Part shown: positions 42,942 through 56,838 of the stretch, in pieces | Position numbering within the stretch: the stretch's first letter is position 1 | Layout of the letters: the number at the start of each line of letters is the position of its first letter | Source of the DNA: Yersinia massiliensis CCUG 53443 | GTDB taxonomy: Bacteria; Pseudomonadota; Gammaproteobacteria; Enterobacterales; Enterobacteriaceae | DNA length: 64,000 nucleotides | Reading direction: 5' to 3' | Assembly (NCBI RefSeq): GCF_000312485.1 | Contig: NZ_HE997646.1 | Coordinates: forward strand, 62,001-126,000 | Program-made: the position numbers and the translations under genes | Notes under the pieces: generated by a model | Told to the model about the DNA's origin: nothing | The model's database searches: none | What the model saw: the letters and a program-made list of their open reading frames with translations, nothing else

Positions 42942-42980
42942 TTCTGCTACTGGTCATCATAAATCAGGGGCGGTAGCGTG
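42942..42980 (+). promoter_or_regulatory. JUMPstart with ops element (RfaH recruitment)
   Basis: The 3' part CAGGGGCGGTAGCGTG includes the ops core GGCGGTAGCGTG at 42969-42980. The upstream part (ctgctactggt) resembles the rest of the 39-base JUMPstart. It lies in the kpsM leader, 36 bases before the chosen start. RfaH loading here allows transcription through the long capsule operon. Confidence 0.92.
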
Positions 42981-43016
42981 GGAAAAAAACAGACTAATAT
43001 TTTGGATAATTTACAG

Positions 43017-43793
43017 ATGGCCCGCAGTGGTTTTGAAGTACAAAAATCAGCCGTTAACGCGTTGTTTCTTAGGGAAATAAAGACTCGATTTGGCAAATTT
43101 CGCCTTGGTTATCTCTGGGCGGCATTAGAACCGATGGCACATATGCTCATTTTACTGGGTATTTTCGGTTATATTATGCAGCGCTCCATGCCCGATATAT
43201 CCTTCCCCGTATTCTTGATTAACGGTATCGTCCCCTATTTCGTTTTCATTAATATTAGTAACCGCTCGATTGGTGCCATAGAAGCTAATCAAGGATTATT
43301 TAACTATCGCCCCGTTAGGCCCATCGACACAATAATTTCCCGCGCCATGTTAGAAACGCTTATCTATGCAATCGTTTATGTCTTACTAATGACGATTGTC
43401 GGCCTGCTTGGCGAAGAGTTTGAAATCGTTAATTTGATTTCATTAATCCTCGTTTGGGTCTTGTTAGTTATCTTCTCCTGCGGCGTCGGTTTGACTTTTA
43501 TGGTAATAGGTAAGACGTTCCCCGAAACAGAAAAATTCCTGCCCATCCTGTTAAAGCCGCTGTATTTTATATCCTGCATCATGTTCCCACTGCATGCTAT
43601 TCCAAAAGAGTACTGGCCCTACTTGCTATGGAATCCATTAGTTCATGTGGTCGAATTGTGCCGTGAAGCTGTGGTTCCGGGTTATATCAGCGAAGGGGCT
43701 AACATCCACTACCTCGCATTATGTGCTTTGGTCAGTCTATTTATCGGGTTAGTCCTATACCGAAACGGTGAAGAGGCGATGCTAACCTCGTGA
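43017..43793 (+). CDS. kpsM: Capsule ABC transporter permease KpsM
   Basis: The 258-residue, six-helix ABC-2 permease exports lipid-linked capsule polysaccharide. Starting at 43017 it begins MARSGFEVQKSAVNALFLRE, which matches the start and length (258) of E. coli KpsM. The frame is open to a GTG at 42978, but that codon lies inside the ops element. RTRFGKFRLGYLW-type and LFNYRPVRPIDT blocks are conserved. It overlaps kpsT by four bases. Confidence 0.95.
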   Translation: MARSGFEVQKSAVNALFLREIKTRFGKFRLGYLWAALEPMAHMLILLGIFGYIMQRSMPDISFPVFLINGIVPYFVFINISNRSIGAIEANQGLFNYRPVRPIDTIISRAMLETLIYAIVYVLLMTIVGLLGEEFEIVNLISLILVWVLLVIFSCGVGLTFMVIGKTFPETEKFLPILLKPLYFISCIMFPLHAIPKEYWPYLLWNPLVHVVELCREAVVPGYISEGANIHYLALCALVSLFIGLVLYRNGEEAMLTS

Positions 43794-53919: not shown

Positions 53920-55595
53920 TAGAGTGTTAGCACCACTTTTGCCGCCACCGCTAACTGGTAAAGAATGGTCGAGATCCCGCGAGAAACTTCGATATTCTTC
54001 GATTCAAATTTCGGTAACACCATCAACTCATCGCCCGGCTGCAACGTTTTAACGTCTTCAGCATTAAGTGCTTCACCATTTTGCTTAATCAAGATGACTT
54101 TCGTGTTGCTTGCCTTTTGCGTATAACCACCCACCTTTGTGATGTAGTCATTCGGACTCAGCCCTTTTTGCCAGCTCACAGCATTAGGGAACATGACCTC
54201 GCCATGAATCATCACCAGCGACGTTTTCTCTGGGATCTTAATCACATCGCCGTCTTCCAAAATCACCTGATTGAGGTTGCTTTCATTCAGTACCACTTCC
54301 CCTTTAGGCACCACGGTGCGGGCTTTGGACACGAAACGGCTAATAAGCTGTGCTTCCTGCATTCTCAGGCGAGCTTCTTCTGATGTAGACGATTGGGCAG
54401 ACAAAGAGGCTTCTTCGAGTTTTTGCAACGACAGGTCAAGCATCTCTTTCTGGCGCAGTGCAACTGAGCGACGGTAGAGTTGGATAGCATCCAATTGTGA
54501 CATGCTGTTCGGGCGGATTTTAGTCAGGACTTGGCTCATCGTCGCCCCATAGGGCAACACAATGGCATGTTCGCCAGAATGCGCGCCTTCAACTCGAACC
54601 TGAATGGTCCCCGAATAACGATCAGCGCTAATAATCAGCTTATCGCCATCCTGCAATGAACGCCCAGGAGCGGAACTGAGTGGGTAATATTCACTGCGCT
54701 TGACGGTCCCTTGCTTACGGATAATCGTCATATGCGTTGCGCCCGGTTTAGGCCGCGCCCAGCTCAGCGCTTCAGTAACAGGGATCGTGCTATCACGGAA
54801 TTCAAAGTCATAACTGTTGAACACTTCACCTTCCACACTGAACGTATGTTGACGTGGGCCAACGACGATGGTGTCACCGTCAGAAAACTGCGATAAACCC
54901 AGATTTCCATTGAGTAAAAAGTCGTACAGATTGACATTCGAACGCACGCTTTTACCGCGTTTGATACTGATATCCACGTAACTACCACTTTGGGTATCAA
55001 CACCACCGGCTTTACTAAGGTAGGAAAGCAATGAATCCGACGCGACGCCACCATACAATCCAGGGTTATTGACGTAACCAGTGACAAATACTTTGACCGG
55101 TTGTGCCTGCAACAGCGAGGCATAAACGTTCACGTTAGACTGATAGACCTGCTTAACTTTATTCGTTACCACGCTATTAATCTGGCTATTCGGAATACCA
55201 ACCACTTTCAACGGGCCAACATTCGGCAGGAAAATATTCCCCTTCGGATCCACACTCAGCGCACCTTCAAAGTTGAATGCGCCCCACAACCGTACTTGAA
55301 TCTGATCCCCCAAACTGACGACATAGTTCGGATTAAAGCCAATGCTGGAACCACTGTCAGCGGCAGATACCGAGTTAAATAATTGGGCACCAAACATGCG
55401 GCTCATGACCACGGGGATCACCGGAGGTGGAGGATCGTAAAACCCGCCATCGTTATTGGCATTTTGGCTTTGACCGGAAATCATCGACGGTAACGGTGCC
55501 GCCCCCGTCATATTCGGATCTGCATTGAGATCGACGGCCTGAGCGTGTGCTGCCTGTAGGGCTATAATCAGCAAAACAGATTTCAATAATTTCAT
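53919..55595 (-). CDS. kpsD: Capsule export outer-membrane/periplasmic protein KpsD
   Basis: The 558-residue polysaccharide-export protein (Wza-like PES and SLBB domains) moves capsule across the periplasm and outer membrane. The signal peptide is at residues 1-20 (MKLLKSVLLIIALQAAHAQA), the PES domain begins NYVVSLGDQIQVRLWGAF, and SLBB repeats follow (VFVTGYVNNPGLY and others). The start at 55595 gives 558 residues, as in E. coli; the reading up to 55679 overlaps kpsE and has no signal sequence. Confidence 0.95.
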   Translation of the reverse strand: MKLLKSVLLIIALQAAHAQAVDLNADPNMTGAAPLPSMISGQSQNANNDGGFYDPPPPVIPVVMSRMFGAQLFNSVSAADSGSSIGFNPNYVVSLGDQIQVRLWGAFNFEGALSVDPKGNIFLPNVGPLKVVGIPNSQINSVVTNKVKQVYQSNVNVYASLLQAQPVKVFVTGYVNNPGLYGGVASDSLLSYLSKAGGVDTQSGSYVDISIKRGKSVRSNVNLYDFLLNGNLGLSQFSDGDTIVVGPRQHTFSVEGEVFNSYDFEFRDSTIPVTEALSWARPKPGATHMTIIRKQGTVKRSEYYPLSSAPGRSLQDGDKLIISADRYSGTIQVRVEGAHSGEHAIVLPYGATMSQVLTKIRPNSMSQLDAIQLYRRSVALRQKEMLDLSLQKLEEASLSAQSSTSEEARLRMQEAQLISRFVSKARTVVPKGEVVLNESNLNQVILEDGDVIKIPEKTSLVMIHGEVMFPNAVSWQKGLSPNDYITKVGGYTQKASNTKVILIKQNGEALNAEDVKTLQPGDELMVLPKFESKNIEVSRGISTILYQLAVAAKVVLTL

Positions 55596-55659
55596 AACAT
55601 GCCCTGAGTCACTGCCTGCGGAGTCATCCCGACAAGCAAGAAATAGCGTTAAAACAGCG

Positions 55660-56838
55660 TCAGTCTTTGTGATCGTCAATCACTGCTAACAACAATTTAG
55701 CTGTGCCAAAAAGCAAACCGCACACCAGTAACCAACTGATTATCAGATACAGGCGATTAGGGAATTTAGCTTCCTGCGGTAACTGCGGCGAGCTGATGAT
55801 CGACAACATTTTTAACTTTCTAGCCGCATCAACACGGGTCTTTTCAATGGATGTCAGGGTTAGTTTGTAGATATCCGTGTCGAACAGCACTTTGGCTTTT
55901 ATCTCTTCAAAATCCACCGCCATACGATTCAGCTTGTGGCCATCAGGTGCGGTGATTTTGCTTTTTTCGTTATCAATCTGTGTGGAAAGCGATTTGAGTG
56001 CATTTTTTGCACTGACAACCTGAGGGGCATCCTCACGAAGGTATGTCATCAAATTACGCAGTTCTGCTTCCATCTGAATACGCTGACTCACCAAGGTATT
56101 GACCAAATTAGTTGCGGCTAAAGCCTGAGCCTCAGGATCCAGTACGTTATTGCTGTTTTGATAGCTAAGGAGCTCAGCTTTACTGCTGTTCAGACGTTTC
56201 CGCGCGGCTTGCATTTCATTTTCGGCGAACTGTAACTGCTCACGCGCAATATGGTGCGAAATCTCATTAATAAAGCGTTCGGACTCTTTCAAAATGGCCT
56301 GATTGAACTGTTGGGCAAACTCCGCTGAAAACCCTTGCGTCCCAATCGTCAGTAGCCCCGTTTTGTCGTCATACGCCACAGAAATACGATCACGATAATA
56401 GTTAAGAAATTGCTCTCGGGTCGCATTGCTAGGCAAATGATAGAAAAAATCCCAACCGCTTTGACCGAAAGCCTGACGAAAATTAAGTTGTTTATCGAGA
56501 ACACCCAACATATCAGGTGAGTTAATGTATTCTTTCAAATATAAGGCATCTTCCGCGGAACTTGGGTTACCGGCACCGAGCAACAAGCCCACATTCAAAT
56601 TACTGCCACTCACATCATTAGACTGTTTGATAGCGACTTTAGACTCACTCAAGTAACGTGGCTGGCTAAAAAGAAGTAGATAGAGCATTAGCAGCGTCAT
56701 CGGTATCAGGATCATAATCTTGCCTAGATGACGCTGCACGCAGGACAGATTTAAATATGATGTCCGCACATGTTTCAGCGTATTCCCTGTGACTGACCAA
56801 ATTAATTTTACTTTTTCAAACAGCATGGATTTCATCAT
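55660..56838 (-). CDS. kpsE: Capsule export inner-membrane protein KpsE
   Basis: The 392-residue PCP-type protein has helices near residues ~45-60 and ~365-385 around a long periplasmic coiled coil. FSQPRYLSESKVAIKQS, GNPSSAEDALYLKEYINSPDML and SIEKTRVDAARKLKMLSIISSPQLP match E. coli KpsE. It links KpsMT to KpsD. Several closely spaced Met codons make the start uncertain; the first is listed and none has a strong ribosome site. It heads the operon because no kpsF precedes it. Confidence 0.94.
   Translation of the reverse strand: MMKSMLFEKVKLIWSVTGNTLKHVRTSYLNLSCVQRHLGKIMILIPMTLLMLYLLLFSQPRYLSESKVAIKQSNDVSGSNLNVGLLLGAGNPSSAEDALYLKEYINSPDMLGVLDKQLNFRQAFGQSGWDFFYHLPSNATREQFLNYYRDRISVAYDDKTGLLTIGTQGFSAEFAQQFNQAILKESERFINEISHHIAREQLQFAENEMQAARKRLNSSKAELLSYQNSNNVLDPEAQALAATNLVNTLVSQRIQMEAELRNLMTYLREDAPQVVSAKNALKSLSTQIDNEKSKITAPDGHKLNRMAVDFEEIKAKVLFDTDIYKLTLTSIEKTRVDAARKLKMLSIISSPQLPQEAKFPNRLYLIISWLLVCGLLFGTAKLLLAVIDDHKD

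What the first reader, a model, noticed from the sequence alone, without database searches (positions are those of the whole stretch)
42942..56838. Group 2 capsule locus that seems to make a teichoic-acid-like polymer
Complete kpsMT and kpsEDCS export modules flank only three region-2 genes: a GT-A glycosyltransferase, a 1,266-residue TagF-like polymerase and a secreted, possibly TagC-like, protein. TagF-type enzymes build poly(alditol phosphate) chains, known from Gram-positive wall teichoic acids and from capsule polymerases of Actinobacillus, Neisseria and Bibersteinia. Such a capsule in an enterobacterium of this type is not something I recall being described. Seen: gene order, motifs. Inferred: the polymer structure.
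Basis: partly seen in the sequence, partly recalled or inferred. Interest (0 to 1): 0.85.

Follow-up and report, generated by a model that had tools for sequence, protein, structure and literature searches.

The report
Probable sugar-phosphate capsule gene cluster
A Yersinia-type bacterium carries a capsule gene cluster whose giant enzyme resembles teichoic-acid polymerases but probably strings together sugar phosphates rather than glycerol phosphates, next to a probably secreted protein shaped like the part with which phages grip Gram-positive cell walls.

The parts
42969..42980 (+). exact ops motif (RfaH recruitment element; motif recalled), overlapping the GTG of the longest kpsM ORF
   Evidence: the only exact match in the window; 4 matches at up to 2 mismatches against 3.6 expected; one search shows the sequence
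43017..43793 (+). kpsM-like ABC permease (258 aa from ATG; the longest ORF starts at GTG 42978)
   Evidence: PF01061 6.5e-13; KpsM model 1.2e-55, below its cut-off
43790..44455 (+). kpsT-like ATPase (221 aa)
44520..45512 (+). separate GT-A glycosyltransferase (330 aa) with LRN, DxD and GHGYED motifs
   Evidence: PF10111 1e-18, PF02709 2.2e-7; motifs invariant in 10 of 10 aligned
45723..49523 (+). TagF-like capsule polymerase (1,266 aa): decayed N-terminal GT-A (about residues 1-260), linker, TagF-like GT-B phosphotransferase (about 440-832), C-terminal 400 residues unassigned
49561..50451 (+). five-bladed propeller (296 aa) with an N-terminal hydrophobic, signal-like stretch (judged by eye)
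50611..51858 (-). kpsS (415 aa)
   Evidence: (PF05159 4e-87)
51892..53919 (-). kpsC (675 aa)
   Evidence: PF05159 8e-103
53919..55679 (-). kpsD (586 aa from the first TTG; the true start may be inside)
55660..56838 (-). kpsE (392 aa)
   Evidence: TIGR01010 1.1e-130

Best explanation
A group 2 (ABC-transporter-dependent) capsule locus of a Yersinia that makes a phosphodiester-linked glycan. The TagF-like domain (residues about 440-832) transfers a sugar-1-phosphate (hexose or HexNAc, from a UDP-sugar that the cell already makes) to the growing chain. The separate GT-A enzyme encoded just upstream supplies, in trans, the inverting (probably beta) glycosyl transfer that in cousins is done by the polymerase's own N-terminal GT-A domain, which here has lost its catalytic motifs. 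Growth is on the Kdo-lipid made by KpsS and KpsC, export is by KpsMT, E and D. The propeller is most likely a periplasmic or surface protein that recognises (binds, or less likely trims) the phosphodiester polymer. Shown by computation: gene content, TagF domain and its catalytic histidines, decay of the N-terminal GT-A, conserved pairing with a separate GT, propeller fold. Inferred: sugar phosphate instead of polyol phosphate, the division of labour, the beta linkage, the role and location of the propeller.
Against: Sugar phosphate is not demonstrated for any member of this clade. A Photobacterium locus (L037) has an intact GT-A/TagF polymerase together with a TagD, so the branch is not free of polyol chemistry. 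A few glycerol-phosphate cytidylyltransferases lie outside the TagD family (two exceptions are mentioned in PMC8262930) and would have been missed. E. coli L012 still has DGD and L013 DGE at the place of DPDD, so loss of metal binding is not uniform. In four loci (L035, L046, L057, L071) the separate GT occurs beside an intact GT-A/TagF, so it need not replace the N-terminal domain. The N-terminal model is of middling confidence (many blocks at pLDDT 46-85) and no fold search covered it. PDB matches of the separate GT are weak (best E 0.01).
Confidence: 0.5

Rival explanations
1. Poly(hexosyl-1-phosphate) made by the TagF domain alone as a homopolymer; the separate GT only adds the first residue to the Kdo linker (transition transferase), in the gene slot that Stealth proteins occupy in related loci.
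For: The polymerase's own GT-A lacks its motifs in the split clade. The separate GT sits where Stealth sits in 24 of 41 loci. It also occurs beside intact GT-A/TagF enzymes in four loci, as expected of a primer enzyme. Two-step priming by transition transferases is published for Actinobacillus serotypes 3 and 7. The L014-type E. coli locus may be K52 (see full report), whose polymer I recall as a galactosyl phosphate.
Against: K52 identity and structure are not established here. All seven split loci keep a GT with intact catalytic motifs, which suits a repeat-unit enzyme equally well.
Confidence: 0.25
2. One reading: a poly(glycerol or ribitol phosphate), or poly(glycosyl-polyol phosphate), teichoic-acid-like capsule.
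For: TagF and TarL, the closest solved relatives, use CDP-glycerol and CDP-ribitol. E. coli K2 shows that such capsules occur in enterobacteria. TagD occurs in L037 and in three non-kps loci, L060, L067, L088.
Against: No TagD or TarI recognised in locus or genome; no TagD seen in the 40 other kps-linked loci, the split ones included; no C-terminal GT-B domain found by Pfam.
Confidence: 0.15
3. The locus is not expressed or the polymer is different in kind (for example the TagF domain moved to another donor not considered).
For: No expression or chemical data exist here; the C-terminal 400 residues are unassigned.
Against: All ORFs are open, an exact ops motif precedes kpsM, the cassette recurs intact in Phytobacter and Enterobacter ludwigii, and catalytic residues are kept.
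Confidence: 0.1

Closest known systems
TagF-like capsule polymerases of GT-A/TagF architecture (CslB of N. meningitidis L, Cps12B and Cps1B of A. pleuropneumoniae, Ccs2 of H. influenzae c; PMC5974469)
   Same: group 2 capsule locus, one very long ORF, TagF-like domain with the two catalytic His, N-terminal region homologous to the GT-A domain, about 400 further residues at the C-terminus (TPR in Cps1B)
   Different: N-terminal GT-A has lost DPDD and the NGG..ARN stretch; a separate GT-A gene lies upstream where these relatives usually have Stealth. Whether the C-terminal part is TPR-like was not tested. None of the named reference proteins was itself in my alignments
E. coli K2 capsule locus (CFT073)
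   Same: enterobacterial group 2 locus with a 1,266-aa CDP-glycerol-glycerophosphotransferase-family protein
   Different: has a TagD, and its polymerase is only distantly similar (phmmer 2e-7)
E. coli L014-type and L012-type group 2 loci (37 and 9 of 5,426 genomes)
   Same: adjacent separate GT (53% identical) and TagF-like polymerase with decayed N-terminus, one clade with the window
   Different: no propeller found next to the polymerase; acyltransferase and other genes instead; K-type names not established here
Receptor-binding platform propellers of S. aureus phages 80alpha, P68 and phi11 (PF21311)
   Different: a single propeller of 296 aa with a signal-like start; no stem or tower, and no phage genes beside it in the ORF list

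Membership tests
Group 2 (ABC-dependent) capsule locus | kpsM, kpsT, kpsE, kpsD, kpsC, kpsS around a variable region 2 | tested here: met
   kpsF and kpsU not among the listed ORFs
TagF-like capsule polymerase family | TagF-like (PF04464) domain in a long ORF (over 2,500 bp) of a group 2 locus | tested here: met
TagF-like capsule polymerase family | conserved catalytic histidines of the TagF fold | tested here: met
   H570 and H695 in 30 of 32 rows, two rows gapped; the other published active-site motifs were not tested one by one
[quoted passage not shown]
   homology of the N-terminus to intact GT-A domains by hhalign (probability 90, E 1.7e-6); no fold search covered it
GT-A/TagF sub-architecture | catalytic DxD (DPDD) in the N-terminal GT-A | tested here: not met
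   EGE in the window; DGD and DGE in the two E. coli enzymes. So it is filed as a variant, not as a plain member of this sub-architecture
[quoted passage not shown]
   no GT-B family after residue 830 in Pfam at E up to 1; no TagD in locus or genome
Poly(ribitol phosphate) pathway | TarI-type cytidylyltransferase in the genome | tested here: not met
   PF01128 finds only IspD and GlmU
Stealth hexose-1-phosphate transferases | Stealth domains in a region-2 protein | tested here: not met
   no Stealth family among Pfam matches of the region-2 proteins
Phage receptor-binding platform propeller (PF21311) | profile score over cut-off and five-bladed propeller fold | tested here: met
TagC of B. subtilis | orthology to TagC | not tested

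The most novel reading that the evidence does not exclude
A Gram-negative, phosphate-linked capsule is served by a dedicated polymer-recognition protein that shares its fold and ancestry with the phage domain that grips Gram-positive wall teichoic acid: a cassette of glycosyltransferase, phosphotransferase and propeller, in which the propeller binds the phosphodiester glycan outside the inner membrane to retain, space or trim it, and in which the fused glycosyltransferase has been retired in favour of a free-standing one.
Probability: 0.35. Interest if true: 0.7.

Novelty: new variant of a known kind. Interest (0 to 1): 0.5.

Why it matters
It corrects a chemical prediction that many annotations would make ('CDP-glycerol glycerophosphotransferase' suggests teichoic acid), offers a natural split of the two activities of capsule polymerases, which helps anyone who wants to rebuild such polymers enzymatically, and points to an unstudied propeller tied to these loci. 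If the propeller binds phosphodiester glycans, one fold would be shared between phages that adsorb to teichoic acid and bacteria that make a look-alike polymer, and that can be tested with purified proteins.

Tried and rejected
Considered and set aside: (1) poly(alditol phosphate): see rivals. (2) The propeller as a prophage remnant: no phage gene lies beside it among the listed ORFs, tblastn against 50,697 phage records at 1e-5 found nothing, and it recurs at the same place in Phytobacter and E. ludwigii. (3) Propeller in E. coli: blastn at E 0.01 found none, but only at DNA level, so a diverged copy is not excluded. (4) K2 as the model: its polymerase is too distant to align in the tree and was left out with two other short rows.

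Results that cut against a neat story: hmmscan of the Phytobacter, E. ludwigii and Yersinia G024 propeller ORFs gave no Pfam family at E up to 0.1, although the genome search scored G024 at 24.2 bits, just over the cut-off of 23.7, and my own profile at 1.7e-8; G024 is therefore a weak case. The 'Ndeg' label is coarse: it also falls on K11, L023, L024 and L112, which are diverged rather than shown to be decayed. The structural rows cover residues 439-841 only. Whether the C-terminal 400 residues are TPR was not tested.

Counts and rows dropped: the 41 loci hold three duplicate pairs (L013/L014 nearly identical; L021/L070 and L022/L085 the same contigs), so about 38 are distinct; many stretches are cut by contig ends, and the window is not among them. 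In the tree three duplicates (L014, L021, L022) and the own-genome loci were left out, and L080, L024 and L110 were dropped as short.

Absence from print: searches (open-licence PMC papers only) turned up no description of this split type or of a propeller in capsule loci. I could not see figures or supplementary tables of PMC13171606, which probably depict the E. coli members. Papers: PMC5974469 passages and sections 4, 6, 14; PMC13171606 outline, passages and sections 8, 9, 10, 30; PMC11666461, PMC10433991, PMC8262930, PMC7305143, PMC4901313, PMC13171598, PMC5566550 passages only; none read whole.
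Full report
What is there. One search lists macA-macB-like ORFs, then kpsM (42978 or, more likely, 43017 to 43793), kpsT, a 330-aa GT, a 1,266-aa TagF-like protein, a 296-aa protein, and on the other strand kpsS, kpsC, kpsD, kpsE, followed by a cysM-like ORF. Family searches agree. Region 2 is 28-38% G+C per 500 bp, the kps genes 42-53%. An exact ops motif lies just before kpsM. The host is most likely a Yersinia: the window carries Rfam family Ysr224, a Yersinia sRNA, over its gathering score; no taxon name was available, and that is one marker only. 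The genome is 5.05 Mb in 22 contigs and has one PF04464 locus.

The genus swaps region 2. In 5 of 25 genomes of the genus (own included) the polymerase query matched. Two relatives (L019, L020) have Stealth plus an intact GT-A/TagF protein of 1,271 aa; another (L023) has Stealth, a weakly propeller-like ORF and a 766-aa TagF-like protein; a fourth (L024) has yet another set. L019, L023 and L024 keep the macAB flank of the window; L020 is flanked by lysS-like genes.

The N-terminus. In relatives it is a GT-A with VDDGS, NGG..ARN and DPDD. In the window it aligns to that domain (hhalign of 7 split-type against 14 intact N-termini: probability 90, E 1.7e-6), but the NGG..ARN stretch is missing and DPDD reads EGE. 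The same loss is seen in L030-L033; the two E. coli enzymes read DGD and DGE there. Sequence profiles of the intact domain do not recognise the window N-terminus (E 0.18, and to another part). Of interest, the 32-row profile matches residues 2-210 of S. epidermidis TagF itself, so an accessory GT-A-like domain ahead of TagF is not unique to capsule enzymes.

The separate GT. It is 49-53% identical among the enterobacterial members (L012, L013, L030, L031, L032), 29-36% to the Caballeronia, alphaproteobacterial and Campylobacter ones, and keeps LRN, DxD and GHGYED (or GHGGED) in all 10 aligned. Its best solved relatives are beta-4-galactosyltransferases and chondroitin synthases, weakly, which hints at an inverting, beta-forming enzyme. 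The GT plus decayed-polymerase pair forms one clade in the TagF-domain tree: window, E. ludwigii, Leclercia, Phytobacter and two E. coli types (SH-aLRT 99), with Caballeronia INDeC2 as sister (99). In 5,426 complete E. coli genomes the two types occur in 37 and 9 (at least 80% of the gene pair covered).

Which donor? PMC5974469 ties GT-A/TagF to poly(oligosaccharide phosphate) and TagF/GT-B to poly(glycosylpolyol phosphate), and PMC8262930 says that the TagF fold transfers glycerol or hexose/HexNAc phosphate. A polyol polymer needs a cytidylyltransferase. The K2 locus has one (131 aa, annotated as pantoate--beta-alanine ligase, TIGR01518 127.8 bits, below that model's cut-off of 165.4). In the window's genome, the best matches to that model and to the K2 protein are HldE (54 and 53 bits) and CoaD (24.5 bits), identified; two still weaker matches were not identified. 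PF01128 gives IspD and GlmU. Among 41 kps-linked TagF loci TagD was found in K2 only. Counter-cases outside the count: L037 (Photobacterium, intact GT-A/TagF with a TagD and a weak kpsM match), and L060, L067, L088, not kps-linked. Unrelated cytidylyltransferases exist, so this is strong but not final.

A lead to a known polymer. One L014-type genome is labelled O15:H18 ST69 (H60). [quoted passage not shown] in L014 kpsT lies between the polymerase and the acyltransferase. All four accessory genes of L014 have counterparts in the plasmid locus that PMC10433991 names as K11 (32-58% identity, order different). K52 is 'fructose-containing' by the title of its structure paper; that K11 also bears fructose, and that both are sugar phosphates, I recall. 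If L014 is K52, this clade makes a sugar phosphate. Not proven.

Verdict. Observation confirmed. Teichoic-like in the sense of phosphodiester-linked: supported. Alditol phosphate and 'undescribed in enterobacteria': not supported. Novel parts: the clade with decayed GT-A plus free GT, and the propeller. New variant of a known kind.

Noticed in passing
42969-42980: Exact ops motif overlapping the longest kpsM ORF start, suggesting RfaH control and a kpsM start at 43017.
   Followed up: partly
15097-15183: Rfam Ysr224 (Yersinia sRNA) on the + strand, 84.6 bits; the basis for naming the genus.
   Followed up: no
24573-27164: Six tRNA genes: four on the minus strand at 24573-25015 and two on the plus strand at 26923-27164.
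   Followed up: no
L023:9298-13594: A relative's kps locus (G024) with Stealth, a weakly propeller-like ORF and a 766-aa TagF-like protein that pairs with the E. coli K11 plasmid enzyme in the tree (support 100).
   Followed up: partly
L112:1-14486: A kps set with Stealth and a TagF-like polymerase on a 29 kb Klebsiella oxytoca plasmid; Citrobacter plasmids also matched the polymerase.
   Followed up: no
L014:15445-20644: Four accessory genes of an E. coli kps locus, each with a counterpart in the K11 locus (32-58% identity, order different); annotated glycosyltransferase family 2 but the second matches an NTP_transf_3 profile weakly.
   Followed up: partly
L037:4985-11716: Photobacterium lutimaris locus with TagD, a 410-aa K2-polymerase-like ORF and an intact GT-A/TagF protein: a possible mixed system.
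   Followed up: no
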